This document shows positions 44,673-63,853 of a DNA stretch of 64,000 nt, one piece after another. The stretch covers positions 1,469,001-1,533,000 of the forward strand of contig NZ_CP100647.1 of assembly GCF_024266585.1 (NCBI RefSeq), written 5' to 3'. This DNA is from Xanthomonas sacchari (GTDB taxonomy: Bacteria; Pseudomonadota; Gammaproteobacteria; Xanthomonadales; Xanthomonadaceae). The notes beneath the pieces are model-generated. The model did no database searches. It saw only the letters and a program-made list of their open reading frames with translations, and was not told the DNA's origin. The translations under genes and the position numbers were made by a program. Within the stretch, counting starts at the first letter, position 1. Each line of letters begins with the position of its first letter.

Positions 44673-45779
44673 ATGCCGATCGCTTCCGCCAGCACCGCCA
44701 CCGCCACCGCACCGCGCCGCCGGGTCATCCTCGAGGACGACATCGACGGCTTCACCCCTGCGCAGTTGCTGCTGCTGCAATCGCCCGAGGTGGAGGTGCT
44801 GGGCATCTCGGTGGTCAGCGGCAACATCTGGCGCGACGAGGCGCTGGCGCACACCCGGCGCCTGCTGGAGATCGCCGGGCGCGGCGAGGTGCCGGTGCTG
44901 CCTGGGCCGGTGTTCCCGCTGCTCAACAGCGAACTGGCCACCGAGCGCTGGGAGGCGCTGTACGGCAAGTTGCTGTGGAAGGGCGCCTGGACCCGGCAGT
45001 GGATCGAACACGACACCGTGCAGAGCGCGCCGCGCTACCACGCCCACGACGTGGTGCCGGACCTGCCGCTGGGCAATCCGACGGTGGTGCAGGCGGCCAG
45101 CGAGCCGGCCGCCTTGTTCATGATCCGCAAGGTGCGCGAATTCCCGGGCGAGGTCAGCATCGTCGCCACCGGCCCGCTGACCAACCTGGCCCTGGCGCAG
45201 CGGCTCGACCCCGAGTTCGCGGCGCTGGCCAAGGAACTGGTCTACATGGGCGGCAGCCTCAATCCGCGGCAGCGCCGCGACAGCGTCTCGGCGGCGCAGT
45301 TCGCCCGCGAGTTCGTCAATTCGCCGCGGCGCGAGTTCAACATCCGCTGGGATCCGGAGGCGGCCAGCATCGTGATGCGCGCGCCGTGGCGGCGCATGGT
45401 GATGGTGCCGGTGGATCCGTCCACCGCCACCGAACTGACCCCGCAGCTGCTGGCGCGGATGAGCGCCGCCGACACGCCGATCGGCCATGCGCTGCGCCGG
45501 CGCGAGCCGGGCTTCCCGATGTGGGACGAACTGGCCACCGCGGTGTGGTTGCGCCCGGAACTGGCCACCGTCAGCGAGACCCTGTACGTGGACACCAACA
45601 CCGAGTTCGGCGCCGGCTACGGCGACATCCTGTCGTGGGCGCCGGGCTACCAGCCGGGCCTGGGCGAGCAGGCGCAGCAGGTGGTGCGCGAGGTCGACGT
45701 GGACGCGATCGAACAGTTGCTGGTGGAGCGTTTGACCGCGCCGCAGCCGCCGGCATTGGGCGTGCCGCTGCCGGCGTAG
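44673..45779 (+). CDS. Nucleoside hydrolase-like protein
   Basis: A 368-residue member of the inosine-uridine nucleoside hydrolase family, which splits nucleosides into base and ribose. VILEDDIDGFTPAQLLLLQS stands in place of the usual DxDxxxDD calcium motif. VLGISVVSGNIWRDEALAHT, VSIVATGPLTNLALAQRLDP, LVYMGGSL and MWDELATAVWLRPEL complete the family pattern. The altered acidic motif may change substrate or activity. No ribosome-binding site stands out at ATG 44673. It is followed by a GCGGGCC/GGCCCGC hairpin and lies at the head of the purine locus, so purine nucleosides are the likely substrates. The 296 bases upstream hold no feature I can support. Confidence 0.83.
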   Translation: MPIASASTATATAPRRRVILEDDIDGFTPAQLLLLQSPEVEVLGISVVSGNIWRDEALAHTRRLLEIAGRGEVPVLPGPVFPLLNSELATERWEALYGKLLWKGAWTRQWIEHDTVQSAPRYHAHDVVPDLPLGNPTVVQAASEPAALFMIRKVREFPGEVSIVATGPLTNLALAQRLDPEFAALAKELVYMGGSLNPRQRRDSVSAAQFAREFVNSPRREFNIRWDPEAASIVMRAPWRRMVMVPVDPSTATELTPQLLARMSAADTPIGHALRRREPGFPMWDELATAVWLRPELATVSETLYVDTNTEFGAGYGDILSWAPGYQPGLGEQAQQVVREVDVDAIEQLLVERLTAPQPPALGVPLPA

Positions 45780-45956: not shown

Positions 45957-47414
45957 ATGCAGATCCCCGCAACCTGGCAGGCCGGTATCCAGCGCAACGC
46001 CGAGCTGCTGCGCGGCTATGCGCAACTGCTGCAGGACTTCGCGCCGCCGCCGCCAGCGCCAGCGCCGCAGGAAGGCGGGGTGATCGCCCCGCTGGTGGCG
46101 GCCACGCGCGCCGACGGCAGCGCCGCCGGGCGGCACGCGCAGCAGGCGCTGGCGCAGATCGAACGCGGCAATCGGCAGCTGTGCGCGGTGACGCGGCCGC
46201 TGCCGGCGCGGGCCGAGGCCGATGCGGCGCGCGTGCAGGCGGCGCTGGCCGGCGGCGGCGACGGCGGTGCGCTGGCCGGGGTGCCATTCGTGGTCAAGGA
46301 CCTGTTCGATGTCGCCGGCCTGGCGACCACCGCCGGCGCCGCGCTGCGCGCCGACGCGGCGCCGGCCACGCGCGATGCGGCGGTGGTGCGGCACCTGGCC
46401 GAGGCCGGCGCGGTGCTGGTCGGCACCGCCAACATGGACGAGTTCGCCTACGGCTTCGCCACGGTCAACGCGCACTACGGCACCACCGCCAATCCGCACG
46501 ATCCGCAGCGCCTGGCCGGCGGGTCCTCCGGCGGCTCGGCGGCGGCAGTGGCGGCGCGCTGGGTGCCGTTCGCGCTGGGCTCGGACACCAACGGTTCGAT
46601 CCGCGTGCCGGCGGCGCTGTGCGGCGTCTATGGGCTGCGTCCGAGCCACGGCAGCCTGGCGGTGGACGGCGTGTTCCCGTTCGTCGAGGCCTTCGACGTG
46701 GTCGGGCCGTTCGCGACCACGGTCGCCGACCTGCGCGTGGTGTACGACGCCATGCGCGGGCAGCCGCTGCCGTCGCTGGACGCCGCCGGCTTGCGCGTGG
46801 CGCGCCTGGACGGCTGGTTCCGGCGCAATCTCGATCCGGAACTGGACGCCGGCCTGGCCGCGCTGCACGCCGCGCTGGGCGGCAACGCCTGGCGCGAACT
46901 GCCACAGGCCGAACGCGCCCGCGCGGCCGCGTTCGTGATGACCGCGGCCGAGGGCGGCTATCGCCATCGCCAGGCGCTGGCCACGCACGGCGACCGCTTC
47001 GATCCGGCGACGCGCGATCGCCTGCTTGCCGGCCTGCAACTGCCCGCCGCGGCCATCGCCGACGCGCAGCGCTTCGGCGCGTGGTTCGCCGAGGCGATGC
47101 AGCGCCTGTGGGACGAGGTCGATGTGCTGCTGGCGCCGGCCACGCCGTGCGCGGCGCCGCGCATCGACCAGGAGACGATCCAACTCGACGGGGCGGCGGT
47201 GTCGGCGCGCGCCAATCTCGGCGTGTTCACCCAGCCGCTGGGCCTGGCGCGCTGCCCGGTGCTGGCCGCGCCGCTGTACCGTCCTGGGCAGTTGCCGCTG
47301 GGCGTGCAACTGATCGCCGCGCCGGGACGCGAGGACCGCCTGTTCGCGCTCGCCGCGCAGCTGGAACGCGCCGGCCTGATCGGCTCGACCCCGCCGTCGC
47401 GGGAGCCGCGCTGA
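45957..47414 (+). CDS. hpxY: AtzE/HpxY-type amidase with N-terminal AtzG/HpxX-like segment
   Basis: A 485-residue amidase-signature hydrolase. The Ser-cisSer-Lys triad is Lys114 (VPFVVKDLFD), Ser190 (AGGSSGGS) and Ser214 (GSDTNGSIR). It is closest in pattern to AtzE and HpxY, which act in cyanuric-acid and oxalurate breakdown. Residues 1-40 (IPATWQAGIQRNAELLRGYA, then QLLQDFAPPPPAP) resemble the C-terminal half of the small AtzG/HpxX partner, normally a separate protein; here they appear fused and shortened. It precedes the HpxW-type gene with a 1-base stop/start overlap (TGATG). In this locus it probably hydrolyses an oxalurate-derived amide. The substrate is inferred. Confidence 0.85.
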   Translation: MQIPATWQAGIQRNAELLRGYAQLLQDFAPPPPAPAPQEGGVIAPLVAATRADGSAAGRHAQQALAQIERGNRQLCAVTRPLPARAEADAARVQAALAGGGDGGALAGVPFVVKDLFDVAGLATTAGAALRADAAPATRDAAVVRHLAEAGAVLVGTANMDEFAYGFATVNAHYGTTANPHDPQRLAGGSSGGSAAAVAARWVPFALGSDTNGSIRVPAALCGVYGLRPSHGSLAVDGVFPFVEAFDVVGPFATTVADLRVVYDAMRGQPLPSLDAAGLRVARLDGWFRRNLDPELDAGLAALHAALGGNAWRELPQAERARAAAFVMTAAEGGYRHRQALATHGDRFDPATRDRLLAGLQLPAAAIADAQRFGAWFAEAMQRLWDEVDVLLAPATPCAAPRIDQETIQLDGAAVSARANLGVFTQPLGLARCPVLAAPLYRPGQLPLGVQLIAAPGREDRLFALAAQLERAGLIGSTPPSREPR

Positions 47415-49543: not shown

Positions 49544-50458
49544 ATGCTGACCTTCTCCCGCTTCACCCGCTATTTCATGGAAGTGGCGCATTGGCGCAGC
49601 ATCCGCCGCGCCTCCGAAGCGCTGCACGTGTCGGCGTCGGCGATCGACCGGCAGATCCTCAAGGCCGAGCAGGAACTGGGCGTGCAGCTGTTCGAGCGCT
49701 TGCCGGGCGGCCTGCGCCTGACCAGCGCCGGCGAACTGCTGCTGGTGGACATGCGGCGCTGGGAGAAGGGCTACCAGCGCACGCTGGAACTGTTCGACGA
49801 ACTGAAGGGGCTGCGCCGCGGCCACGTCGAGATCGCGATGATCGATGCGTTGAGCGAGGGCATCGTGGTCGATGCGCTGGCGCACCTGATCGACGAGCAC
49901 CCGGGCCTGACCTTCAGCCTGCAGACCGAGGACAACCAGAAGGTGGCCGACAAGGTGGTCGCGGCGGAGGTGGATGTCGGCCTGCTGCTGGACCCGGTCA
50001 GCGGCATCGACCTGGAGGTGGTCGCCTTCGCCGAGATCCCGCTGGGCCTGTGCATGCCGGTCGGGCATCCGCTCAGCGGCAGGGCCAGCCTGCAGTTGAA
50101 CGACCTGCTCGGCGAGCATCGCCTGCTGCTGCCGGCGGCGCCGCTGATCGTCAACGAACACGCCAAGGCGGTGTACCAGCGCCAGCACATCGACACGCGC
50201 CGCTGCATCCGCTGCAACGACGTGCGCACGCTGCGCGCGCTGGTGCGCCAGGGCGTCGGCGTGGGCCTGCTGTCGCAACTGGACGTGCTCGCCGACCTGG
50301 CCGAGGGGCGGCTGGCGTTCGTGCCCTTGCGCGAAGGCCTGGCCAGGCCGATGACGCTGGCGCTGTGCGTGGCGCCGCAGCGGCAACTGTCCCGGGCCGC
50401 GCAGACCATGCTCAAGGCGCTGGCGCCGCGCGTGGAAGCGATCCTGGAGCCGCGCTAG
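49544..50458 (+). CDS. LysR-type regulator of the purine locus
   Basis: A 304-residue LysR regulator. The winged helix-turn-helix is at residues 1-62 (RRASEALHVSASAIDRQILK, AEQELGVQLFERLPGGLRLT). A linker helix and a two-lobed effector domain follow (VEIAMIDALSEGIVVDALAH, EVDVGLLLDPVSGIDLEVVA, VRQGVGVGLLSQLDVLADLA). It lies between the hpxY-hpxW genes and the allantoate amidohydrolase operon, in the same direction as both. A T-N11-A palindrome 182 bases after its stop, upstream of the operon promoter, is its likely binding site. A purine breakdown product is the expected inducer. Confidence 0.92.
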   Translation: MLTFSRFTRYFMEVAHWRSIRRASEALHVSASAIDRQILKAEQELGVQLFERLPGGLRLTSAGELLLVDMRRWEKGYQRTLELFDELKGLRRGHVEIAMIDALSEGIVVDALAHLIDEHPGLTFSLQTEDNQKVADKVVAAEVDVGLLLDPVSGIDLEVVAFAEIPLGLCMPVGHPLSGRASLQLNDLLGEHRLLLPAAPLIVNEHAKAVYQRQHIDTRRCIRCNDVRTLRALVRQGVGVGLLSQLDVLADLAEGRLAFVPLREGLARPMTLALCVAPQRQLSRAAQTMLKALAPRVEAILEPR

Positions 50459-50706: not shown

Positions 50707-50847
50707 GCGGTGAACCCCGGTCGAGGCCTGGATTCCTCTGTCAAGCGATTGATTTGGAAGAAGTTCCAGGCGTTCGCGCGGCATCCCAAGCCGCGCCCGT
50801 CCGACCGGCCCCATTGCCTTGCCGTTTGTCCCGAAGCGAGACCCGCC

Positions 50848-50895
50848 ATGCGCCACCCCCATCCCCATCGCGCCCGCCCGGGCCGCCGCGGCTGA
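50848..50895 (+). CDS. Possible leader peptide upstream of the purine operon
   Basis: A 15-codon frame, MRHPHPHRARPGRRG then TGA, ends 13 bases before the first structural gene. It is rich in His, Arg and Pro and sits within the predicted leader transcript. It could be a translated leader that affects initiation downstream, but a frame this short in GC-rich DNA can easily arise by chance. Confidence 0.25.
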   Translation: MRHPHPHRARPGRRG

Positions 50896-50908
50896 GCCGG
50901 CAGCGGCC

Positions 50909-52165
50909 ATGCTGATGCCGGCCTCGACGCCAGGCCTGCGCGCGGTCGCGCGCTGCGACGCGCTCGGCGTGGCGCCCTACAGCGACACCGCCGACGGCCT
51001 GTTCCGCGGCTGGCTCAGCCCGGCGCATCGCGCCACCGTGGCGGCGGTGGCGGCGTGGATGGGCGAGGCCGGCCTGCATCCCCGCATCGACCCGGCCGGC
51101 AACCTGCTCGGCCGCTACGAAGGCGCCGTCGCGAACGCGCCGGCGCTGCTGATCGGCAGCCACCTGGACAGCGTGCGCGACGCCGGCCGCTACGACGGCC
51201 CGCTCGGGGTCATGCTCGGCATCGAATGCGTGGCCGCGCTGCATGCGCAGGGCCGGCGGCTGCCGTTCGCGATCGAGGTGATCGGCTTCGGCGACGAGGA
51301 GGGCTCGCGCTTCCCGGCGTCGATGCTGAGCAGCCGCGCGGTGGCCGGCACGCTGGATCCGGCGGCCTTGCAGGTGCACGACGGCGACGGCATCGCCCTG
51401 GCCGAGGCGCTGGCCGCCTGGGGCCTGGACATCGCGCTGCTGCCGCGTGCGGCGCGCGCGCCGCAGGAGGTGCTGGCCTACCTGGAAGCGCATATCGAAC
51501 AAGGGCCGGTGCTGGAGGCCGAGGGGCTGGCGTTGGGGGCGGTCAGCGGCATCGCCGCGCAGCGGCGCTACCGCGCGCTGCTGCGCGGCCGCGCCGGCCA
51601 TGCCGGCACCACGCGCATGGACCTGCGCGCCGATGCGCTGGCCGCCGCCGCCGAGTGCGTGCTGGCGGTGGAGCAGGTGGCGCGTAGCGGCCCGGCGGAC
51701 CTGGTGGCCACGGTCGGGCGCCTGCAGGTGGCGCCGGGCGCGGTCAACGTGGTGCCGGGGCGGGTCGAGTTCTCGATCGACGTGCGCGCCGGCACCGACG
51801 CCGTGCGCGATGCCGCGGCCGCCGCGATCGCGCAGCGCCTGCACGCGATCGCCGCCGCGCGCGGCGTGCAGTTGGACCTGCAGTGCGTGCAGGACCTGCC
51901 GGCCAGTCCCTGCGCTCCGCGCCTGGTCGCGGCGCTGGAAACGGCGATCGCCGCGCAGGGCATCGCGCCGCGGCGGCTGGTGTCCGGTGCCGGCCACGAC
52001 GCGATGGTGATGGCCGCGCTGTGCCCGACCGCGATGCTGTTCCTGCGCTGCGCCGGCGGCGTCAGCCACCACCCCGCCGAACGGGTGGATCCCGCCGATG
52101 CCGACCTGGCGGTGGCGGCGATGCTGCATTTCCTCGATTCCCTGGGAGACACCCTTGTCCGTTGA
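50909..52165 (+). CDS. allC: Allantoate amidohydrolase
   Basis: A 418-residue M20-family amidohydrolase of the allantoate/ureidoglycolate/N-carbamoyl type. Metal and active-site motifs are LIGSHLDSVRDAGRYDGPLG (His85, Asp96), GFGDEEGSRFP (Glu130/131), LEAHIEQGPVLE and a dimerisation segment RGRAGHAGTTRMDLRADA, then SGAGHDAMVMA and SHHPAERV. It turns allantoate into ureidoglycine with release of ammonia and CO2. ATG 50909 is used; a TTG at 50819 would add a low-complexity tail. It is the first gene of an operon in which every later gene overlaps or abuts its neighbour. Confidence 0.9.
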   Translation: MLMPASTPGLRAVARCDALGVAPYSDTADGLFRGWLSPAHRATVAAVAAWMGEAGLHPRIDPAGNLLGRYEGAVANAPALLIGSHLDSVRDAGRYDGPLGVMLGIECVAALHAQGRRLPFAIEVIGFGDEEGSRFPASMLSSRAVAGTLDPAALQVHDGDGIALAEALAAWGLDIALLPRAARAPQEVLAYLEAHIEQGPVLEAEGLALGAVSGIAAQRRYRALLRGRAGHAGTTRMDLRADALAAAAECVLAVEQVARSGPADLVATVGRLQVAPGAVNVVPGRVEFSIDVRAGTDAVRDAAAAAIAQRLHAIAAARGVQLDLQCVQDLPASPCAPRLVAALETAIAAQGIAPRRLVSGAGHDAMVMAALCPTAMLFLRCAGGVSHHPAERVDPADADLAVAAMLHFLDSLGDTLVR

Positions 52166-53414
52166 ACCGCTGCCCGCCGACCTGTTCGGCGAGATCGATC
52201 CGCCGCAACGCCTGCTGATGGGCCCGGGCCCGGTCAATGCGCATCCGCGCGTGCTGCGCGCGATGTCCGCGGACCTGCTCGGCCAGTTCGATCCGGAAAT
52301 GACCGGCTACATGAACCAGGTGATGGCGCTGTACCGGCCGCTGTTCGGCACCAAGAACCACTGGACCTTCCTGGTCGACGGCACCGCGCGCGCCGGCATC
52401 GAGGCGGCGCTGGTGTCGCTGGTGGCGCCGGGCGAGCGCGTGCTGGTGCTGAACTTCGGCCGCTTCGGCCTGCTGCTGGGCGAGATCCTCGGCCGCATCG
52501 GCGCGGTGGTGGAGACCGTGGAGGCGCCGTGGGGCGAGGTGGTGCCGATGGCGGCGGTAGCCGACGCGATCGAACGCTTCGCGCCGAAGCTGGTGGCCTG
52601 CGTGCATGGCGACACCTCGACCACGATGGCGCAGCCGCTGGACGGCCTCGGCGCGCTGTGCCGCGCCGCCGGCGCGCTGTCCTACGTCGATGCCACCGCG
52701 ACCATCGGCGGCATGCCGATCGCCAGCGACGCCTGGGGCGTGGACGTGGTCACCGGCGGCCTGCAGAAGTGCCTGGGCGGGCCGTCCGGCTCGGCGCCGA
52801 TCACCGTCTCCGCGCAGGCCGCCGAGGCGATCTTCGCGCGCCGCCACGTCGAGTGCGGCATCGTCCGCGACGACATCGCCAACGGCCGCGGCGTGCGCAT
52901 CGGCTCGAACTACTTCGACCTGGCGATGGTGATGGACTACTGGTCCGACAAGCGCCTGAACCACCACACCGAGGCCACCAGCATGCTGTACGCGGCGCGC
53001 GAATGCGCACGCGTGGCGCTGCAGGAAGGCCTGCCGGCGCGCTTCGCGCGGCACGCCGCGGCCGGCCGCGCGGTCGCCGCCGGCGTGCGCGCGCTGGGGC
53101 TGCAGGTGTTCGGCGACGACCGCTACCGCATGGCCAACGTCACCGGCGTGGTGATTCCGCCCGGCATCGACGGCGAGGCGGTGCGGCGGCGCCTGCGCGA
53201 GGATTTCGAGATCGAGATCGGCACCGCGTTCGGGCCGCTGCAGGGCAAGCTGTGGCGGATCGGCGCGATGGGCTACAACGCGATGAAGCACAAGGTGCTG
53301 ATCACCCTGGGTGCGCTGGAGGCGGTGCTGCGCGCCGAAGGCCACGCCTGCGCGGCGGGCGCGGCGGTGGAGGCGGCGCTGGCCGCCTGGCATGCCGACG
53401 GAGCGCGGCGATGA
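52155..53414 (+). CDS. Ureidoglycine-glyoxylate aminotransferase
   Basis: A 419-residue class V PLP aminotransferase. PQRLLMGPGPVNAHPRVLRA is the substrate loop of the alanine/serine-glyoxylate aminotransferase family. VDGTARAGIEAALVSL, SYVDATATIGGMPIASDAWG and TGGLQKCLGGPSG (PLP lysine Lys205) follow. Next to allantoate amidohydrolase this is most likely the PucG/HpxJ type, which passes the amino group of ureidoglycine to glyoxylate and yields oxalurate and glycine. The start is TTG 52155, preceded by GGGAG and overlapping allC by 11 bases; no ATG fits before the conserved N-terminus. Confidence 0.88.
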   Translation: MSVEPLPADLFGEIDPPQRLLMGPGPVNAHPRVLRAMSADLLGQFDPEMTGYMNQVMALYRPLFGTKNHWTFLVDGTARAGIEAALVSLVAPGERVLVLNFGRFGLLLGEILGRIGAVVETVEAPWGEVVPMAAVADAIERFAPKLVACVHGDTSTTMAQPLDGLGALCRAAGALSYVDATATIGGMPIASDAWGVDVVTGGLQKCLGGPSGSAPITVSAQAAEAIFARRHVECGIVRDDIANGRGVRIGSNYFDLAMVMDYWSDKRLNHHTEATSMLYAARECARVALQEGLPARFARHAAAGRAVAAGVRALGLQVFGDDRYRMANVTGVVIPPGIDGEAVRRRLREDFEIEIGTAFGPLQGKLWRIGAMGYNAMKHKVLITLGALEAVLRAEGHACAAGAAVEAALAAWHADGARR

Positions 53415-54301
53415 GCGCGGCGCGCGACCTGGTCGGCTATGGCGCGCAGCCGCCGGATCCGCAGTGGCCGGGCGGCGCGCGGGTGGCGCTGCAGTTCGTA
53501 CTCAACTACGAGGAAGGCGCCGAGAACAGCGTGCTCAACGGCGATGCCGGCTCGGAGGCATTCCTGTCGGAGATGGTCGGCGCGCACAGCCATGCCGGTG
53601 CGCGCGCGATGGCGATGGAGAGCCTGTACGAATACGGCAGCCGCGCCGGTTTCTGGCGGCTGCAGCGGCTGTTCGCCGCGCGCGGCGTGCCGGTCACGGT
53701 GTTCGGCGTGGCGCAGGCGCTGGCGGCCAATCCCGCGGCGGTGCAGGCGATGCGCGACGCCGACTGGGAGATTGCCAGCCACGGCCTGCGCTGGATCGAC
53801 TACCAGCAGGTGCCGGAGGCGACCGAGCGTGCGCACATCGCCGCGGCGATCGCCTTGCACACGCAAGTGGCCGGTGCGCGTCCGCTGGGCTGGTACCAGG
53901 GGCGCACCAGTCCCAACACCGCACGGCTGGTGGCCGAGGAGGGCGGTTTCGTCTACGACGCCGACAGCTATGCCGACGACCTGCCGTACTACGACCGCCG
54001 CCACGGCCGCGCGCAGCTGGTGGTGCCGTACACGCTGGACGCCAACGACATGAAGTTCGTCGCCTATAACGGCTTCGCCGACGGCGAACCGTTCTTCCGC
54101 TACCTGCGCGATAGCTTCGAGCAGTTACGCGCCGAGGGTGGGCGGATGATGTCGGTGGGCCTGCATGGGCGCATCGCCGGGCGCCCGGCGCGCGCCCTGG
54201 CGCTGGCCCGCTTCGTCGACCACGTCCTGGCCAGCGGCCAGGCCTGGATCGCGCGGCGCATCGACATCGCCCGCCACTGGCAGCGGGTGCACCCGGCATG
54301 A
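53411..54301 (+). CDS. puuE: Allantoinase PuuE
   Basis: A 296-residue polysaccharide-deacetylase-fold protein of the cofactor-independent allantoinase (PuuE) family. RVALQFVLNYEEGAENSVLN, LSEMVGAHSHAGARAMAMES, YEYGSRAGFWRLQRLF, EIASHGLRWIDYQ, GWYQGRTSPNTARLV and YDADSYADDLPYY are the PuuE signature regions. It opens the hydantoin ring of allantoin to give allantoate. The start overlaps the aminotransferase stop (ATGA). Confidence 0.93.
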   Translation: MSAARDLVGYGAQPPDPQWPGGARVALQFVLNYEEGAENSVLNGDAGSEAFLSEMVGAHSHAGARAMAMESLYEYGSRAGFWRLQRLFAARGVPVTVFGVAQALAANPAAVQAMRDADWEIASHGLRWIDYQQVPEATERAHIAAAIALHTQVAGARPLGWYQGRTSPNTARLVAEEGGFVYDADSYADDLPYYDRRHGRAQLVVPYTLDANDMKFVAYNGFADGEPFFRYLRDSFEQLRAEGGRMMSVGLHGRIAGRPARALALARFVDHVLASGQAWIARRIDIARHWQRVHPA

Positions 54302-54678
54302 TCCTCAACGCGCCCGAGGTGCTGGCCGAAGTGCAGGCGGCGTTCGCCGCCTACGAACGCGCGCTGATGGACGACGACGTCGCCGCGCTGGACCGGCTGT
54401 TCCACGATGCGCCGACCACGGTGCGCTACGGCGTCGGCGAGGCCTTGTACGGCGCCGACGCGATCCGCGCGTTTCGCCGTAGCCGCGGCGGCTCGCCGCA
54501 ACGGCGGCTGTTGCGCGTGCAGATCGTCGCCTACGGGCGTGACTTCGCCACCGCCGATGCCGAATTCCAGCGCGACGGCAGTCCGCGCCGCGGCCGCCAG
54601 AGCCAGAGCTGGGTGCGCTTCGCCGATGGCTGGAAGGTGGTGTCGGCGCACGTGTCGCTGCAGGGGGACCACGCATGA
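54298..54678 (+). CDS. hpxZ: AtzH/HpxZ-like SnoaL-fold protein
   Basis: A 126-residue protein of the AtzH/HpxZ (DUF3225, SnoaL-like) family: PEVLAEVQAAFAAYERALMD, DDVAALDRLFHDAPTTVRYG, GEALYGADAIRAFRRSRGG and RQSQSWVRFADGWKVVSAHV. AtzH is reported to decarboxylate the product of AtzE; HpxZ is its purine-pathway counterpart. It probably finishes the reaction of the amidase encoded at 45957-47414. It is coupled by ATGA overlap on both sides. Confidence 0.85.
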   Translation: MILNAPEVLAEVQAAFAAYERALMDDDVAALDRLFHDAPTTVRYGVGEALYGADAIRAFRRSRGGSPQRRLLRVQIVAYGRDFATADAEFQRDGSPRRGRQSQSWVRFADGWKVVSAHVSLQGDHA

Positions 54679-55166
54679 GCGGCGTCGACTGGAATGCGCT
54701 GCCCGAGGCGGAGTTCGTCGCGCGCCTGCATGCGCTGTTCGAGCATTCGCCCTGGGTGGTGCAGCGCGCCGCGGCGCGGCGTCCGTTCGCCGACCTGCAT
54801 GCCGGCCTGCTGCAGGTGCTGCACGAGGCCAGCGCCGAGGAGCAGCTGGCGCTGATCCGCGCGCATCCGGAACTGGCCGGCAAGGCCGCGATCGACGGCA
54901 ACCTGACCACCGCCTCGGCCGCCGAGCAGGCGCAGGCCGGGCTGGACCGCCTGACCGCGGAGGAGTTCGCCCGGTTCCACGCGCTCAACGCCGCCTACCG
55001 CGCGCGCTTCGACTTCCCGTTCGTGGTCTGCGTGCGCCTGACCGACAAGGCCGGCATCCTCGCCGCGATGCAGGCGCGGCTGGCGAATACGCGCGAGGCC
55101 GAGATCGCCACCGCCCTCGACGAGATCGGCAAGATCGCGCGGCTGCGCCTGGAGGCGCTGTCGTGA
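54675..55166 (+). CDS. uraD: OHCU decarboxylase
   Basis: A 163-residue 2-oxo-4-hydroxy-4-carboxy-5-ureidoimidazoline decarboxylase that gives (S)-allantoin. It is all-helical, with catalytic His64 in IRAHPELAGKA, GLDRLTAEEFARFHALNAAY and the substrate-binding stretch RFDFPFVVCVR. EIATALDEIGKIARLRLEAL ends the protein. It acts after 5-hydroxyisourate hydrolase, encoded two genes downstream. Overlapping starts and stops on both sides suggest coupled translation. Confidence 0.94.
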   Translation: MSGVDWNALPEAEFVARLHALFEHSPWVVQRAAARRPFADLHAGLLQVLHEASAEEQLALIRAHPELAGKAAIDGNLTTASAAEQAQAGLDRLTAEEFARFHALNAAYRARFDFPFVVCVRLTDKAGILAAMQARLANTREAEIATALDEIGKIARLRLEALS

Positions 55167-56605
55167 GCGCCGCCGAGGACGGGCTGCAGGCGCTGTCGGC
55201 GCAGGTCGCGCGCGAACTGCAGTGGCTCGGCCATGGCGGGCCCGACTGGACCCGCGCGCAGCCGCACGATGGCGAGCACGTCTACGACGTGGTCATCGTC
55301 GGCGGCGGCCAGAGCGGGCTGGGCGCGGCCTTCGGCCTGCTGCGCGAGCGCATCTCCAACCTGCTGGTGATCGACGAGAATCCCGCTGGCCAGGAAGGGC
55401 CGTGGGTCACCTACGCGCGGATGGTCACCCTGCGCACGCCCAAGGAACTGAGCGCGCTGGACTTCGGCATGCCGTCGCTCACTTTCCGCGCCTACTGGGA
55501 AGCCCGCCACGGCGCCGCGGCCTGGGACGCGCTGGGCAAGATCCCGCGCGCGGACTGGATGGACTACCTGCGCTGGTACCGCCAGGTGCTCGGCCTGCCG
55601 GTGCGCAACCGGGCGCGGCTGCTGCGCATCGAACCGCTGCCGACGCAGCGCCTGCAACGCCTGCACCTGGACGGCGGCGACACGCTGCTGGCGCGCAAGG
55701 TGGTGCTGGCCACCGGCATCCAGGGCGGCGGGCAATGGCACGTGCCGTCGCTGGTGGCCGGCAAGCTGACCCGCGCGCGCTACGCGCACACCTCCGAGGC
55801 GATCGACTACGCGGCGCTGGCCGGGCGCCGCATCGGCATCCTCGGCGGCGGCGCCTCGGCCTTCGACAACGCCCAGCACGCGCTGGCCGCCGGCGTCGGC
55901 GAGGTGCACGTGTTCGTGCGCCGCAACGCGCTGCCGCGGGTCAATCCGATCCGGCACATGGAACGCAGCGGCATCATCCCGCGCTTCGCCGCGCTGGCGG
56001 ATGCCGACAAGTACGCGATGATGGCCAGCTTCTTCCGCCGCAACCAGCCGCCGACCAACGACACCTTCGAACGCGCCGCGGCCTGGCCCAATTTCCACCT
56101 GCACCTGGGCAGCCCGTGGCAGGACGTGGCCGAGACCGCCGACGGGGTGCTGGTGACCACGCCGCACGGGCGCCTGCCGTTCGACTTCGTGGTGCTGTCC
56201 ACCGGCCTGGTCACCGACCCGGCGCTGCGCCCGGAACTGGCGGCGGTGGCCGACGGCATCGCGCGCTGGCGCGACCGCTACCGCCCGCCGCCGGGACAGG
56301 AACTGCCGCTGCTCGACGCGCATCCCTACCTGGGCCCGGGCTTCGAGTTGCTGCCGCGCACGCCGGCGCACGCGGCGGCGCTGCACGGCCTGTTCGCGTT
56401 CAACTACTCGGCGCTGCTGAGCCTGGGCCTGTCGGCGGCGGCGCTGTCCGGGCTCAAGCACGCATTGCCGCGGCTGGTGAAGGCGGTCGCCGACCAACTG
56501 TTCCTGGACGAGCGCGAGGCGATGCTCGCCGCGTACATGGACTACGCCGAACCCGAATTCGTCGGCCAATGGCCGATGCCGCACCTGGAGGAATCCGTCG
56601 GATGA
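55163..56605 (+). CDS. Two-Rossmann flavoprotein, candidate urate-oxidising monooxygenase
   Basis: A 480-residue FAD/NAD(P)-binding protein. The FAD site is YDVVIVGGGQSGLGAAFGLL (Gly-rich loop 47-52), with DENPAGQEGPWVTYARMVTLRTPKELSALDFG-type substrate loops (seen as WVTYARMVTLRTPKELSAL). The NADPH Rossmann motif is GRRIGILGGGASAFDNAQHA (228-233), and VVLSTGLVTDP gives the late ATG-type strand. The layout is like flavin-containing monooxygenases, not the single-Rossmann HpxO. It is encoded between OHCU decarboxylase and HIU hydrolase, just where a urate hydroxylase is needed and otherwise missing. The start is GTG 55163, overlapping uraD. The reaction is inferred from context. Confidence 0.75.
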   Translation: MSAAEDGLQALSAQVARELQWLGHGGPDWTRAQPHDGEHVYDVVIVGGGQSGLGAAFGLLRERISNLLVIDENPAGQEGPWVTYARMVTLRTPKELSALDFGMPSLTFRAYWEARHGAAAWDALGKIPRADWMDYLRWYRQVLGLPVRNRARLLRIEPLPTQRLQRLHLDGGDTLLARKVVLATGIQGGGQWHVPSLVAGKLTRARYAHTSEAIDYAALAGRRIGILGGGASAFDNAQHALAAGVGEVHVFVRRNALPRVNPIRHMERSGIIPRFAALADADKYAMMASFFRRNQPPTNDTFERAAAWPNFHLHLGSPWQDVAETADGVLVTTPHGRLPFDFVVLSTGLVTDPALRPELAAVADGIARWRDRYRPPPGQELPLLDAHPYLGPGFELLPRTPAHAAALHGLFAFNYSALLSLGLSAAALSGLKHALPRLVKAVADQLFLDEREAMLAAYMDYAEPEFVGQWPMPHLEESVG

Positions 56606-56934
56606 GCAGCCTGTCGACCCATGTGCTGGACCTGAGCCGCGGGCTGCCCGCCGCCGGCGTGGCGCTGCGCCTGTTCGCCGGCGAAGCGTTGCTGCATGAG
56701 GACGTCACCGATGCCGACGGCCGCTGTCCGGCGCTGCGCGCGCTGACCCTGGCGGCGGGGCGCTATCGCTTGGAATTCGCCGTGGCCGACTACTTCCGCG
56801 GCGGCGGCGTGGCCTTGCCCGAGCCGCCGTTCCTGGACGTGGTGCCGATCGCCTTCGGCCTGGCCGAGACGGGGCACTGCCACGTGCCGCTGCTGGTCTC
56901 GCCGTTCGGCTACTCCACCTACCGGGGCAGCTGA
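56602..56934 (+). CDS. uraH: 5-Hydroxyisourate hydrolase
   Basis: A 110-residue transthyretin-related protein. LSTHVLDLSRGLPAAGV carries catalytic His7. GRYRLEFAVADYF, FLDVVPIAFGLAETGHCHVP and LLVSPFGYSTYRGS with the diagnostic C-terminal YRGS follow. It converts 5-hydroxyisourate, the product of urate oxidation, to OHCU. There is no export signal, so it is cytosolic. ATG overlaps the stop of the flavoprotein gene. Confidence 0.96.
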   Translation: MSSLSTHVLDLSRGLPAAGVALRLFAGEALLHEDVTDADGRCPALRALTLAAGRYRLEFAVADYFRGGGVALPEPPFLDVVPIAFGLAETGHCHVPLLVSPFGYSTYRGS

Positions 56935-58408: not shown

Positions 58409-60734
58409 CGGTCCGACCGCCGCTCCCGCCGCCGCGTCCTTGCAGGTGCACCGCGCGCTGCGCCACGACAGCGCGCCGGCGCATGTCAGCGGCCAGGCGC
58501 GCTACATCGACGACCTGCCCGAACCGCCCGGGCTGCTGCACCTGGCGTTCGGCCTGAGCGACCACCCGCATGCGCGGCTGCTGCGCCTGGACCTGGCGCC
58601 GGTGCGCGCGGCGCCGGGCGTGGTGGCGGTGTTCGCCGCCGCCGACATTCCCGGCGAGAACAATGTCGCCCCGGTCGCGCACGACGACCCGCTGTTCGCT
58701 CGCGACACGGTGCTCTACCACGGCCAGCCGCTGTTCGTGGTCGCCGCCGACAGCCATGCCGCGGCGCGGCGCGCGGCGCGCCTGGCGCGGGTCGAGTACG
58801 CGCCGCTGCCGGCGCTGCTGAGCATCGCCGCGGCGCGCGCGGCCGGCGCGGTGCTGGAGCCGGCGCAGCGCATGGCCCGCGGCGGCGACGTCGATGCGGC
58901 CCTGGCCGCGGCGCCGCGGCGCTGCAGCGGCGCGCTGGAGATCGGCGGGCAGGAGCATTTCTACCTGGAAGGCCAGATCGCCGTGGCCCTGCCCGGTGAA
59001 CAGGGCCAACTGCACGTGCTGTCCTCGACCCAGCATCCGAGCGAGGTGCAGCACCTGATCGCGGCGCTGCTCGGCCTGGACAGCGCCGACGTGACCGTGG
59101 AAGTGCGGCGCATGGGCGGTGCGTTCGGCGGCAAGGAGACCCAGGCGGCGGCGCCGGCGGCGGCCTGCGCGCTGGTCGCCGCGCTGACCGGCCGCCCGGC
59201 CAAGCTGCGCTACGACCGCGACGACGACATGCGCATCACCGGCAAGCGCCACGACTTCCAGGTCGACTACCAGGTCGGCTTCGACGACGACGGTCGTATC
59301 CTGGCGCTGCGCCTGGAGCTGGCCTCGCGCTGCGGCGCCACCACCGACCTGTCGCTGGCGATCAACGACCGCGCGATGTTCCATGCCGACAACTGCTACT
59401 GGCTGCCGGTGGTGGAGATCGTCTCGCACCGCTTGCGCACGCACACCGTGTCCAACACCGCGTTCCGCGGCTTCGGCGGGCCGCAGGGCATGCTGGCGAT
59501 CGAACGCGTGCTGGACGCGGTCGCCGCCGCGCTGGGCCGCGATGCGCTGGCGGTGCGCCGGGCAAACCTGTACGCGGCGCCGCACCGCAACGTCACCCCG
59601 TACGGCATGACCGTGGAGGACAACGTCGCGCCGGCGCTGATCGAGGAACTGGCCGCGCGCGCCGACTACCCCGCGCGGCAGGCGGCGGTGGCGGCGTTCA
59701 ACGCGCGCCACCGGGTGCTGAAGAAGGGCCTGGCGCTGACCCCGGTGAAATTCGGCATCAGCTTCACCACCACCCATCTCAACCAGGCCGGCGCGCTGGT
59801 GCTGGTCTATGCCGACGGCTCGGTGCAGCTCAACCACGGCGGCACCGAGATGGGCCAGGGGCTGATGATCAAGGTCGCGCAGATCGTCGCCGACGTGTTC
59901 GGCCTCGACACCGCGCGCGTGCGCATCACCGCCACGCGCACCGACAAGGTGCCCAACACCTCGGCCACTGCGGCGTCCTCGGGCACCGACCTCAACGGCA
60001 TGGCCGCCTACAACGCGGCCAGCGAGATCCGCGCGCGGCTGGCCGCGCTGGCCGCCGAGCGCGGCGGCGTGGCGCCGGCGCAGGTGCGCTTCGCCGACGG
60101 CAGGGTCGTGGCCGGTCGCTTCGAGCTGGATTTCGGCGCGCTGTGCCGGCAGGCGCACATGGCGCGCATCTCGCTGGCCGCCAGCGGCTACTACGCCACG
60201 CCGAAGATCCACTACGACCGCGCCAGCCACCGTGGTCGCCCGTTCTACTACTTCGCCTACGGCGCGGCGCTGAGCGAAGTGGTGATCGACACGCTGACCG
60301 GCGAGCACAAGGTGCTGGCGGTGGACGTGCTGCACGACGTCGGCCGCTCGCTGAACCCGGCGATCGACCTGGGCCAGATCGAGGGCGGTTTCGTCCAGGG
60401 CATGGGTTGGCTGACCACCGAGGAACTGGTCTACGACGCGGATGGCCGGCTGCTGACCCATGCGCCCTCGACCTACAAGATCCCCACCGCCGGCGACCGC
60501 CCGGCGCGGATGGACATCCGCCTGTGGCAGGCCGGGCGCAACCAGGAGCCGAGCATCCATCGCTCCAAGGCGGTCGGCGAGCCGCCGCTGATGCTGGCGA
60601 TCTCGGTGTTCTCGGCGCTGACCCAGGCGGTGGCCGCGGCGGCACCGGGCGCCGGCGTGCCGGCCCTGGACGCGCCGGCCACGCCGGAGCGGATCCTGGC
60701 TGCGATCGCGAGGCGTGCGGCCGATGCGCGCTGA
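58401..60734 (+). CDS. xdhB: Xanthine dehydrogenase molybdenum-binding subunit
   Basis: A 777-residue molybdopterin subunit that oxidises hypoxanthine and xanthine to urate. GQEHFYLEGQIAVALPGEQG, RRMGGAFGGKETQAAAPAAA, NTAFRGFGGPQGMLAIERVL, NHGGTEMGQGLMIKVAQIVA, TAASSGTDLNGMAAYNA and the catalytic Glu in HRSKAVGEPPLMLAIS are all in place. ATG 58401 is chosen over the shadow extension upstream. It overlaps xdhA and, by 11 bases, xdhC. It needs molybdenum cofactor, for which modABC at 10 kb could supply molybdate. Confidence 0.97.
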   Translation: MADGPTAAPAAASLQVHRALRHDSAPAHVSGQARYIDDLPEPPGLLHLAFGLSDHPHARLLRLDLAPVRAAPGVVAVFAAADIPGENNVAPVAHDDPLFARDTVLYHGQPLFVVAADSHAAARRAARLARVEYAPLPALLSIAAARAAGAVLEPAQRMARGGDVDAALAAAPRRCSGALEIGGQEHFYLEGQIAVALPGEQGQLHVLSSTQHPSEVQHLIAALLGLDSADVTVEVRRMGGAFGGKETQAAAPAAACALVAALTGRPAKLRYDRDDDMRITGKRHDFQVDYQVGFDDDGRILALRLELASRCGATTDLSLAINDRAMFHADNCYWLPVVEIVSHRLRTHTVSNTAFRGFGGPQGMLAIERVLDAVAAALGRDALAVRRANLYAAPHRNVTPYGMTVEDNVAPALIEELAARADYPARQAAVAAFNARHRVLKKGLALTPVKFGISFTTTHLNQAGALVLVYADGSVQLNHGGTEMGQGLMIKVAQIVADVFGLDTARVRITATRTDKVPNTSATAASSGTDLNGMAAYNAASEIRARLAALAAERGGVAPAQVRFADGRVVAGRFELDFGALCRQAHMARISLAASGYYATPKIHYDRASHRGRPFYYFAYGAALSEVVIDTLTGEHKVLAVDVLHDVGRSLNPAIDLGQIEGGFVQGMGWLTTEELVYDADGRLLTHAPSTYKIPTAGDRPARMDIRLWQAGRNQEPSIHRSKAVGEPPLMLAISVFSALTQAVAAAAPGAGVPALDAPATPERILAAIARRAADAR

Positions 60735-61782
60735 CTGGAGCCTGCATGCCGAAGCGGCGCTGGCGCGCGGCCCGGCCGCGCTGGTCACGGTGCTGGCCAC
60801 GGCCGGCTCGACCCCGCGCGAGGCCGGCACGCGCATGCTGGTGAGCGCCGACGGCAGCATCGGCACCATCGGCGGCGGCGTGCTCGAGTGGCGCGCCTGC
60901 GCGCTGGCGCGCGACCTGCTGGCGCAGCCGCCGGGCAGCTGGCAGGTGCAGGACTACACGCTGGGTGCGGCGGCGCCGGCGCGCGCGGCGCGTTGCAGCG
61001 GCAGTTGCCGCGACTGCGCCACGCACGCCGCGGCCGACGATCTGCTCGGCCAGTGCTGCGGCGGCCGCGTGCGCCTGTTGCTGGAGCGGCTGGATCCGGC
61101 GCGCAGCGACTGGCTGCGGCAGGCGACGCTGGGGCGCACGTTGTCGACCCGCTTGCAGGCGGACGGCATCGCGCACGCCATCGACGACGCGCCGCCGCAG
61201 GCGCTGTCGCTGCGTGCGCCGGCGCCCACCGCCGGGACCCTGTTGCGGCAGGCGATCGGCCCGCGGCGCACGCCGCTGCTGCTGTTCGGCGCCGGCCATG
61301 TCGGCATCGCCATCGCGCATGCGTTGCACGGGTTGCCGTTCGCGCTGGACTGGGTCGATTCGCGCGCGGAACTGGCCGCTGCCGCCGGCGCCGCGCACTT
61401 GGATGACGCTGCCTTGCTTGCGCGTGCCCGCAGCGCACCGGCCGAGGCGATGCTGCTGATCCTGACCCACGACCATGCCCTGGACTACCGGCTCACCGCC
61501 GCGGCGCTGGCCGGCCGTGCCGGTTTCGTCGGCCTGATCGGCTCGGCGTCCAAGCGCGCGCGGTTCCTGTCGCGGCTGCGCCACGACGGCCTGGGCGAGG
61601 CCGCGCAGGCGCGGCTGACCTGTCCGATCGGCCTGCCGGGGATCGAGGGCAAGGCCCCGGCGGTGATCGCGGTGGCGGTGGCCGCGCAGCTGTTGCTGCG
61701 CGCATCGGCACTGGACGCGCAGCGTCCGCTGGCGGAGGACGCCACGTCGCTGCCACTGCAATCCGCGCTCGCTGCGCGATGA
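60724..61782 (+). CDS. xdhC: Xanthine dehydrogenase accessory protein XdhC
   Basis: A 352-residue molybdenum-cofactor chaperone that inserts sulfurated cofactor into XdhB. The N-terminal domain has VTVLATAGSTPREAGTRMLV, IGTIGGGVLEW and the family's LGQCCGGRV (Cys111, Cys112). The C-terminal Rossmann domain has LLLFGAGHVGIAIAHAL, LTHDHALDYRLTAAAL, GFVGLIGSASKRARFL and CPIGLPGIEGKAPAVIAVAV. A small extra cysteine group (Cys91, Cys95, Cys98) precedes the conserved pair and is not a feature I know from the family. It is the last gene of the operon; GTG 60715 is an alternative start. Confidence 0.94.
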   Translation: MRADWSLHAEAALARGPAALVTVLATAGSTPREAGTRMLVSADGSIGTIGGGVLEWRACALARDLLAQPPGSWQVQDYTLGAAAPARAARCSGSCRDCATHAAADDLLGQCCGGRVRLLLERLDPARSDWLRQATLGRTLSTRLQADGIAHAIDDAPPQALSLRAPAPTAGTLLRQAIGPRRTPLLLFGAGHVGIAIAHALHGLPFALDWVDSRAELAAAAGAAHLDDAALLARARSAPAEAMLLILTHDHALDYRLTAAALAGRAGFVGLIGSASKRARFLSRLRHDGLGEAAQARLTCPIGLPGIEGKAPAVIAVAVAAQLLLRASALDAQRPLAEDATSLPLQSALAAR

Positions 61783-61840: not shown

Positions 61841-62775
61841 TGGGGGTGGCTTTAGCGTTGGCGAGCGAAGCGGTGCGCGCACCGATGGCGCACTGCGTCG
61901 GGACTGAAGTCCCTCCCACAGTGCCCCAGCCAGCTCGCCGCAAGCCCCTGTGGGAGCGGCTTCAGCCGCGGCGAGCGAAGCGGTGTAATTTCCGATGGCG
62001 CACTGCGTCTGGACTGAAGTCCCTCCCACAGTGCCCCAGCCAGCTCGCCGCAAGCCCCTGTGGGAGCGGCTTCAGCCGCGACGAGCGAAGCGGTGCGCTC
62101 GCCGATGGCGTACTGCGTCGGGACTGAAGTCCCTCCCACAGTGCCTCGGGCAACTCGCCGCAAGCCCCTGTGGGAGCGGCTTCAGCCGCGACGAGCGAAG
62201 CGGTGCGCTCGCCGATGGCGTACTGCGTCGGGACTGAAGTCCCTCCCACAGTGCCTCAGGCAACTCGCCGCAAGCCCCTGTGGGACCGGCTTCAGCCGCG
62301 ACGAGCGAAGCGGTGCGCTCACCGATGGTGCACTGCGTCGGGACTGAAGTCCCTCCCACAGTGCCTCAGCCAGCTCGCCACAAGCCCCTGTGGGAGCGGC
62401 TTTAGCCGCGACGAGCGAAGCGGTGCGCTCACCGATGGCGCACTGCGTCGGGACTGAAGTCCCTCCCACAGTGCCCCAGGCAGCTCGCCGCAAGCCCCTG
62501 TGGGAGCGGCTTCAGCCGCGACGAGCGAAGCGGTCCGCTCGCCGATGGCGCACTGCGTCGGGACTGAAGTCCCTCCCACAGTGCCTCAGGCAACTCGCCG
62601 CAAGCCCCTGTGGGAGCGGCTTCAGCCGCGACGAGCGAAGCGGTCCGCTCGCCGATGACGCACTGCGTCGGGACTGAAGTCCCTCCCACAGTGCCCCAGG
62701 CAGCTCGCCGCAAGCCCCTGTGGGAGCGGCTTCAGCCGCGACGAACGCAGCGCTGTGCTTTCCGACGACGCGATG
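61841..62775. repeat. Tandem array of a 110-bp REPIN-like unit, about 8.5 copies
   Basis: Eight units repeat with an exact 110-bp period; the CAAGCCCCTG anchor occurs at 61941, 62051, 62161, 62271, 62381, 62491, 62601 and 62711. The upstream half-unit and the last unit are degenerate. Each unit holds two small palindromes, GCGGCTTCAGCCGC and GGGACTGAAGTCCC, inside outer arms CTGTGGGAG and CTCCCACAG, so every unit can fold into a long hairpin. Units differ by only a few bases (for example GTGCGCTC/GTCCGCTC). The period is not a multiple of three, and the 95-codon frames on both strands are not genes. The array fills most of the 1084-base gap 61783-62866; the flanks hold nothing else I recognise. 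Confidence 0.95.
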
Positions 62776-62866: not shown

Positions 62867-63826
62867 TTACGGCAGCCCGGCCAGCCAGTCGTCGTCGCTG
62901 CCTTCGTTGATGTCGGCGAACAGCGGCGTGGAGAAGTAGCGCTCGCCGGTGTCCGGCAGCATTGCCAGGATCACCGCACCGGGCGCGGCGGTCTCGGCCA
63001 CGCGCAGCGCGGTGGCGACCGTGCCGCCGCCGGAGATGCCGGTGAAGATGCCTTCCTCGGCGGCGAGGCGGCGCGACACCGCGATGGCGTCGGCGTCGTC
63101 CACGCTCAGCACTTCGTCGTAGACCTCGCGGTTGAGCACTTCGGGCACGAAGTCCGGGGTCCAGCCCTGGATCTTGTGCGGCTTCCACTCCTGGCCCTGC
63201 AGCAGGGCCGCGCCGGCCGGCTCGGTGGCGGTGATGCGCACCTCCGGGCGGGCCAGCCGCAGCACTTCGCCGACGCCGGTAAGGGTGCCGCCGGTGCCCC
63301 AGCCGCTGACGAAATGGTCGAGCCGGCGGCCGGCGAAGTCGCGCAGGATCTCCGCGGCGGTGGTGCTGCGGTGATAGGCCGGGTTGGCCGGGTTGGCGAA
63401 CTGCCGGGCCAGGAACCAGCCGTGCTGCTTGGCCAGTTCCTCGGCCTTGCGCACCATGCCGCTGCCGCGCTCGGCAGCCGGGGTCAGGATCACCTTGGCG
63501 CCGTAGGCGCGCATCAGCTTGCGGCGCTCGATCGAGAAGGTCTCCACCATCGTCGCCACGAACTTGTAGCCGCGCGCGGCGGCGACCATCGCCAGCGCCA
63601 CGCCGGTGTTGCCCGAGGTCGCCTCGACGATGGTGTCGCCGGGCTTGAGCAGGCCGCGCGCCTCGGCGTCGAGCACGATCGCCAGGGCCAGGCGGTCCTT
63701 GACCGAGCCGCCGGGATTGAAAGCCTCGACCTTGACGTACAGGTCCACGTGCGCCGGGGCCAGGCGCTGCAGCTTGACGATCGGGGTGTGGCCGATGGTG
63801 TCGAGGATGTTGTCGTAGATGGCCAT
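62867..63826 (-). CDS. cysK: Cysteine synthase A
   Basis: A 319-residue O-acetylserine sulfhydrylase that makes cysteine from O-acetylserine and sulfide. PLP lysine Lys43 is in NPGGSVKDRLA. The substrate loop is EATSGNTGVALAMVAAARG, phosphate binding is at VSGWGTGGTLTGVGEVL, and GIFTGISGGGTVATAL with a C-terminal LPDTGERYFSTPLF is typical of CysK. ATG 63826 has GGAG 9 bases upstream. The gene upstream on the same strand is a siroheme synthase (28 bases between), so sulfite reduction and cysteine synthesis are linked here. Confidence 0.97.
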   Translation of the reverse strand: MAIYDNILDTIGHTPIVKLQRLAPAHVDLYVKVEAFNPGGSVKDRLALAIVLDAEARGLLKPGDTIVEATSGNTGVALAMVAAARGYKFVATMVETFSIERRKLMRAYGAKVILTPAAERGSGMVRKAEELAKQHGWFLARQFANPANPAYHRSTTAAEILRDFAGRRLDHFVSGWGTGGTLTGVGEVLRLARPEVRITATEPAGAALLQGQEWKPHKIQGWTPDFVPEVLNREVYDEVLSVDDADAIAVSRRLAAEEGIFTGISGGGTVATALRVAETAAPGAVILAMLPDTGERYFSTPLFADINEGSDDDWLAGLP

Positions 63827-63853
63827 GCGCAATGTCTCCGGGAAGAAGGCGGG

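What the first reader, a model, noticed from the sequence alone, without database searches (positions are those of the whole stretch)
55163..56605. Candidate new urate-oxidising enzyme in an otherwise complete purine degradation operon
The operon encodes XdhABC (making urate), 5-hydroxyisourate hydrolase and OHCU decarboxylase (which need oxidised urate), then allantoinase, allantoate amidohydrolase and the ureidoglycine aminotransferase. No uricase (UOX), membrane PuuD or single-Rossmann HpxO is present in the window. The only oxidoreductase left is a two-Rossmann FMO-like flavoprotein placed exactly between uraD and uraH, with overlapping start and stop codons. Established: HpxO shows that a flavoprotein can do this step. 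Inference: this structurally different family does it here.
Basis: partly seen in the sequence, partly recalled or inferred. Interest (0 to 1): 0.72.

Follow-up and report, generated by a model that had tools for sequence, protein, structure and literature searches.

The report
Known urate hydroxylase HpyO in Xanthomonas

Summary
A 480-aa two-Rossmann flavoprotein gene (55163-56605, +) lies between uraD and uraH, with 4-base overlaps at both ends. The inferred function is very probably right too: the gene does urate oxidation. The novelty claim fails. An FAD- and NAD(P)H-using urate hydroxylase not homologous to HpxO was reported from Xanthomonas in 2012 as HpyO (Michiel et al.; known here only through passages of PMC4562309). 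The closest named relative found is X. bonasiae, 90% identical with the same operon. The own genome has no UOX or PuuD match and nothing near the HpxO cut-off. Of 200 genomes of the order, 42 carry uraD: 8 have this protein and no PuuD, 34 have full-length PuuD and no protein of this clade, 0 both, 0 neither. Of 44 named genomes carrying this clade, 44 have uraD, 0 UOX, 0 full-length PuuD. The clade is separated from 34-46% homologues with 100/100 support. A modest extra: the clade also occurs in Bacillales whose genomes gave no UOX match.

The parts
55163..56605 (+). hpyO, urate hydroxylase (FAD, NAD(P)H), 480 aa
   Evidence: name by literature
54675..55166 (+). uraD, OHCU decarboxylase
   Evidence: TIGR03164, 196.3 bits over cut-off 96.25
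56602..56934 (+). uraH, 5-hydroxyisourate hydrolase
   Evidence: TIGR02962, 105.3 bits over cut-off 87.45
54298..54678 (+). hpxZ, oxalurate catabolism protein (AtzH-like)
   Evidence: NF033625, 167.7 bits over cut-off 135; PF11533
53411..54301 (+). puuE, allantoinase
   Evidence: TIGR03212, 511.5 bits over cut-off 424.6
52098..53414 (+). class V aminotransferase, probably ureidoglycine-glyoxylate aminotransferase (true start uncertain, the ORF overlaps the gene before)
   Evidence: family hits below cut-off; name from context and recall
50819..52165 (+). allantoate amidohydrolase
   Evidence: NF006775, 627 bits over cut-off 479
49544..50458 (+). LysR-type regulator, possible operon regulator (inference)
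   Evidence: PF00126 and PF03466
47414..48994 (+). gamma-glutamyltransferase-like protein, HpxW-type (oxamate amidohydrolase by recall)
   Evidence: PF01019, 414.8 bits; below the TIGR00066 cut-off
45957..47414 (+). AtzE-family amidase (HpxY-type by recall)
   Evidence: TIGR02715, 606.5 bits over cut-off 425.75
44817..45779 (+). inosine-uridine nucleoside hydrolase (start not determined)
   Evidence: PF01156
56936..58408 (+). xdhA, xanthine dehydrogenase FeS/FAD subunit
   Evidence: PF00111, PF01799, PF00941, PF03450
58401..60734 (+). xdhB, xanthine dehydrogenase molybdenum subunit (start approximate)
   Evidence: ORF; found in the flank of 18 of 45 related non-Bacillales loci; name from position and recall, no family search run on it
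60715..61782 (+). xdhC, xanthine dehydrogenase maturation factor
   Evidence: PF02625, PF13478

Best explanation
The gene is hpyO of a Xanthomonas-clade bacterium. Its product binds FAD in the first Rossmann fold and NAD(P)H in the second. It would reduce the flavin with NAD(P)H, form a C4a-hydroperoxyflavin with O2, and hydroxylate urate to 5-hydroxyisourate, releasing water. UraH and UraD, whose genes overlap it on either side, then turn this unstable product into allantoin, and PuuE, allantoate amidohydrolase and the oxalurate genes take it further. Shown here: operon order, domains, orthology to the gene at this place in other Xanthomonas, absence of the other urate oxidases, and the either/or pattern. 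Reported elsewhere: HpyO uses FAD and NAD(P)H (PMC4562309). Inferred: that this copy has that activity, and the flavin chemistry.
For: Gene between uraD and uraH with overlaps. uraD and uraH both found in the flank in 44 of 45 non-Bacillales loci of the clade; L057 has uraH but no uraD match in the flank. Own genome: no UOX, no PuuD, no HpxO over cut-off. Order sample of 200 genomes: uraD in 42; 8 with this protein at 67% identity or more and no PuuD; 34 with full-length PuuD and none of this clade; 0 both, 0 neither; no uraD-free genome has either; UOX 0 of 200 (tallied in 49). Of 44 named genomes of the clade: uraD 44, UOX 0, full-length PuuD 0. Clade support 100/100, with the window beside X. 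bonasiae and near other Xanthomonas. HpyO of Xanthomonas described as an FAD- and NAD(P)H-dependent urate oxidase not homologous to HpxO.
Against: No activity data for this protein. The sequence of the assayed HpyO was not available: Michiel et al. 2012 is not held, so the match to it goes through genus, context and family description. 15 of 16 Bacillales members lack uraD/uraH matches within the fetched flank. 34-46% homologues exist in genomes that have PuuD, so the wider family is not urate-specific. The HpxO search of the 49 genomes had no positive control. Fifteen further genomes of the order sample and four of the 44 clade genomes have partial PF06181 matches that pass the Pfam cut-off; I did not count them as PuuD. 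No structure prediction was possible.
Confidence: 0.94

Rival explanations
1. The flavoprotein acts elsewhere in purine or ureide catabolism (for example on another purine or as an oxidase of a side product) and urate is oxidised by an unrecognised enzyme elsewhere in the genome.
For: Homologues of 34-46% identity occur in genomes that have PuuD, without uraD/uraH in the fetched flank. Most Bacillales copies are not next to uraD/uraH.
Against: Exact either/or with PuuD across 42 uraD-bearing genomes of the order; 44 of 44 tested genomes of the clade gave no UOX and no full-length PuuD match; an FAD/NAD(P)H urate hydroxylase is already reported from Xanthomonas.
Confidence: 0.04
2. It is a urate-oxidising enzyme of a family not described before.
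For: NCBIfam release 20.0 returned no urate-oxidase match for it at E <= 1e-5, and related plasmid genes carry generic or no names. It is not related to HpxO by family search.
Against: HpyO of Xanthomonas fits it in genus, cofactors, lack of homology to HpxO and co-occurrence with urah/urad.
Confidence: 0.02

Closest known systems
HpyO, FAD-dependent urate hydroxylase of Xanthomonas spp. (Michiel et al. 2012, Environ Microbiol Rep 4:642; known here only through passages of PMC4562309)
   Same: Genus, FAD and NAD(P)H use (predicted here), unrelated to HpxO, with urah/urad and without the other urate oxidases
   Different: Nothing found. This copy is from a lineage with 66-72% identity to the gene of the fetched Xanthomonas loci other than X. 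bonasiae, and with xdhABC directly downstream, which those loci lack in the fetched flank
HpxO, FAD-dependent urate hydroxylase of Klebsiella
   Same: Same reaction and cofactors by report
   Different: Different flavoprotein family; the window protein gave no HpxO match in NCBIfam at E <= 1e-5
PuuD, membrane cytochrome c urate oxidase
   Same: Fills the same pathway step
   Different: Unrelated membrane protein; in the order sample the full-length form occurs only where this clade is absent
UOX (uricase)
   Same: Same pathway step
   Different: Cofactor-free T-fold enzyme; 0 of 200 in the order sample
ArsO-type and bacterial FMO-like flavoproteins (PDB 4usr, 4c5o, 4a9w)
   Same: Sequence match over residues 40/41-233; two-Rossmann layout by recall
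   Different: Weak match far below the ArsO cut-off (52.7 against 425 bits); other substrates

Membership tests
HpyO | Urate- and NAD(P)H-dependent O2 use giving 5-hydroxyisourate | not testable with these tools
   Needs an assay
HpyO | FAD site and NAD(P)H site (two Rossmann motifs), family other than HpxO | tested here: met
   GGGQSG at 47, GGGASAFDN at 228; Pfam NAD_binding_9, Pyr_redox_3; no HpxO match at E <= 1e-5
HpyO | Orthologue of the Xanthomonas gene at the uraD-uraH junction | tested here: met
   90% to X. bonasiae, 66-72% to the other fetched Xanthomonas; one clade, 100/100
HpyO | Sequence identity to the assayed HpyO protein | not tested
HpyO | Co-occurs with urah/urad in genomes without uox, hpxO, puuD | tested here: met
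   uraH was looked for in the flanks only. The HpxO part covers the own genome and 49 genomes without a positive control, not the order sample
HpxO | Match to NCBIfam NF033623 over 500 bits | tested here: not met
   Window protein: no hit at E <= 1e-5; own genome: best 140.6 bits
UOX | Uricase domain PF01014 | tested here: not met
   0 in own genome, control rang in 2 of 14
PuuD | Urate_ox_N PF06181, full length | tested here: not met
   0 in own genome, control rang in 1 of 14
ArsO | NF040505 over 425 bits | tested here: not met
   52.7 bits

The most novel reading that the evidence does not exclude
HpyO is not confined to Proteobacteria. A well-supported branch of the clade (59-66% identity) is the urate oxidase of Bacillales (Paenibacillus, Cohnella, Niallia, Metabacillus and others) that have uraD but no detected uricase, and the gene moved between the phyla, ending up away from the purine cluster in 15 of the 16 fetched loci.
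Probability: 0.7. Interest if true: 0.25.

Novelty: already known. Interest (0 to 1): 0.12.

Why it matters
It closes the gap in this operon with an enzyme already in print. Practically, NCBIfam release 20.0 returned no urate-hydroxylase match for it, so such a gene can look like a missing urate oxidase to a reader; several plasmid homologues bear only the name NAD(P)/FAD-dependent oxidoreductase. The 27 clade-marking residues and the PuuD exclusion pattern could help build a model that separates HpyO from its 34-46% relatives.

Tried and rejected
Alignment A1 was made with several relatives on the wrong strand; it was discarded and replaced by A2. The two 34-37% homologues in G018 were considered as HpyO and rejected: L017 lies beside transporter genes, I saw no uraD/uraH among the ORFs of either locus, they fall outside the clade, and G018 has full-length PuuD. 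HpxO-like hits in the own genome were considered as a hidden urate oxidase; six of the ten were classified, from the matched stretch only. L002 passes the salicylate monooxygenase cut-off; L006 and L008 pass cut-offs of ubiquinone-hydroxylase families; L005 passes only a hypothetical-protein subfamily; L003 and L004 pass no cut-off and remain unnamed FAD monooxygenases. L007, L009 and two hits without a locus were not classified. Partial PF06181 hits in G203, G211, G218 and G233 (27.5-39.1 bits, over the Pfam cut-off) and in 15 genomes of the order sample were not counted as PuuD: PMC4562309 describes short DUF989 proteins with a partial match and no cytochrome. Rows dropped before counts: in the handle searches 44 of 61 clade loci were searched (50-handle limit and my choice; L064 not held); the tree used 45 rows, 35 of the clade, and warns of long branches among the distant rows. 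A Bacillus paramycoides paper naming an FAD-dependent urate hydroxylase was checked (passages): it cites HpxO, does not mention HpyO, and gives no sequence in what I saw, so it neither supports nor weakens the Bacillales reading.

Full report
What is there. The gene at 55163-56605 (+) encodes 480 aa from a GTG start and has one match in its genome. It overlaps uraD by 4 bases (GTGA) and uraH by 4 bases (ATGA). Around it, on the same strand, are a nucleoside hydrolase, an AtzE-type amidase, an HpxW-type gamma-glutamyltransferase-like protein, a LysR regulator, allantoate amidohydrolase, a class V aminotransferase, PuuE, HpxZ, UraD, UraH and xdhABC. The aminotransferase and XdhB names rest partly on context and recall. 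The protein has only general FAD/NAD(P) oxidoreductase matches in Pfam and only distant solved relatives: four distinct PDB sequences of bacterial monooxygenase/oxidoreductase type, matching residues 40-233 at most.

Other urate oxidases. The whole genome (one contig of 4,889,028 bases) has no UOX and no PuuD; both searches rang in control genomes. The best of ten HpxO-model hits is 140.6 bits against a cut-off of 500; it is a salicylate monooxygenase by NCBIfam (644 bits over a cut-off of 446). L003 and L004 are HpxO-like FAD monooxygenases that could not be named, and four hits were not classified, but none of the ten reaches the HpxO cut-off.

Distribution in the order. In 200 genomes of the order, 9 have a homologue at E <= 1e-30. 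Eight of these, the window's own genome included, are the window's clade (67-100% identity); the ninth, G018, has two homologues at 35 and 37%. UraD is found in 42 of 200 (31 over the curated cut-off). PF06181 matches 49 of 200, all over the Pfam cut-off, but only 34 have a near full-length match (344-449 bits); the other 15 have only short partial ones. UOX is in 0 of 200. Cross-tabulated by handle: uraD with HpyO only 8, uraD with full-length PuuD only 34, both 0, uraD with neither 0, PuuD without uraD 0, HpyO without uraD 0. HpxO was not searched in this sample. Two of the six listed genomes of the window's genus (G155, G159) lack both uraD and HpyO. G082, of the same family, has uraD without HpyO and has PuuD instead.

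Wider relatives. By context (tblastn at E <= 1e-8 in flanks of up to 8 kb, some cut by contig ends), of 45 clade loci of Xanthomonas, sphingomonads and other non-Bacillales, 44 have both uraD and uraH, 45 have uraH, and 18 have xdhB. The exception, L057, has uraD elsewhere in its genome. Of 16 Bacillales loci, 1 (L072) has both. Of 19 loci at 42-46% identity, none has either. Whole-genome checks on 49 genomes (44 of the 61 clade loci, four of the 42-46% group, and G082) gave UOX 0 of 49; uraD 48 of 49, the miss being G246 of the 42-46% group; and near full-length PuuD in G082 and all four of the 42-46% group but in 0 of 44 of the clade, four of which have partial matches of 27.5-39.1 bits. At least one of the 44 (L036/G212) is also in the order sample as G173, judging by the same contig and coordinates. 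HpxO gave 0 of 49 at E <= 1e-100, but that search had no positive control. Of the 44, 14 are Bacillales; all 14 have uraD and none has UOX or a PuuD match. In some of them uraD and uraH sit side by side elsewhere: uraH was found beside uraD in 7 of 8 Bacillales uraD loci looked at, the eighth (L124) being part of the L072 stretch.

Phylogeny. In a tree of 45 proteins the 35 clade members lie on one side of a branch (100/100, length 0.78) and the 10 distant ones on the other; the root is by midpoint only, and the program warns of long branches among distant rows. The window groups with X. bonasiae and L012 (100/100). The 11 Bacillales rows form one branch (100/100). The direction of any transfer is not shown. 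27 residues mark the clade: present in at least 34 of 35 members and at most 2 of 10 distant ones.

Literature. PMC4562309 (passages read) says that a urate oxidase not homologous to HpxO was identified in Xanthomonas spp., named HpyO, belonging to a distinct family of hydroxylases and using NAD(P)H and FAD, citing Michiel et al. 2012. It counts hpyO among the four known urate oxidation genes and says Uox is prevalent in monoderm prokaryotes; the passages do not say whether any monoderm has HpyO. The primary paper is not held and was not read; my recollection that the assayed protein came from X. campestris comes from no call. The term HpyO is in 9 papers of the library: PMC10117892 and PMC5270733 hold it only in a reference; PMC5138847 and PMC9067508 hold it once each and were not opened; the remaining four besides PMC4562309 were not opened, of which the rhenium complex paper uses it for a hydroxypyridine. 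Urate hydroxylase with Xanthomonas is in one paper, PMC4562309. HpyO with Paenibacillus is in none, so in this library I found no report of a Bacillales HpyO; subscription papers, the primary one included, may hold it.

Verdict. What remains open is the assay, the direct alignment with the reference sequence, and the status of the Bacillales branch.

Noticed in passing
61862-62759: Tandem array of about 8 copies of a 110-base unit (94% matches) just after xdhC, before a PLP-dependent enzyme gene on the other strand (62867-63832).
   Followed up: no
L046, L047, L050, L052-L054, L056, L060, L062-L065, L067, L069, L072, L073: Bacillales carry clade members at 59-66% identity, in 15 of 16 loci without uraD/uraH in the flank; the 14 genomes checked have uraD but gave no UOX or PuuD match.
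   Followed up: partly
L062 and L063, about 10.9-13.7 kb: In two Paenibacillus loci the HpyO gene lies near HpxW-like and AtzE-like genes (35-42% identity), hinting at a link with oxalurate use.
   Followed up: partly
L078, L080, L081, L083-L098, L017, L018: Homologues of 34-46% identity without uraD/uraH in the flank and, in the five genomes checked (G018, G244-G247), together with PuuD: sister proteins of unknown substrate. In L086 the gene is followed by an oxygenase-like gene (by eye) and an amidase.
   Followed up: partly
H1 (NC_015583) and H2 (NZ_CP081002): Large sphingomonad plasmids (1.16 and 1.25 Mb) carry 67-68% homologues, so the gene can be plasmid-borne.
   Followed up: no
L104-L106: Short proteins matching part of the PuuD membrane domain in genomes that have HpyO; they fit the short DUF989 proteins mentioned in PMC4562309 (Pfam run on L104 only).
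   Followed up: partly
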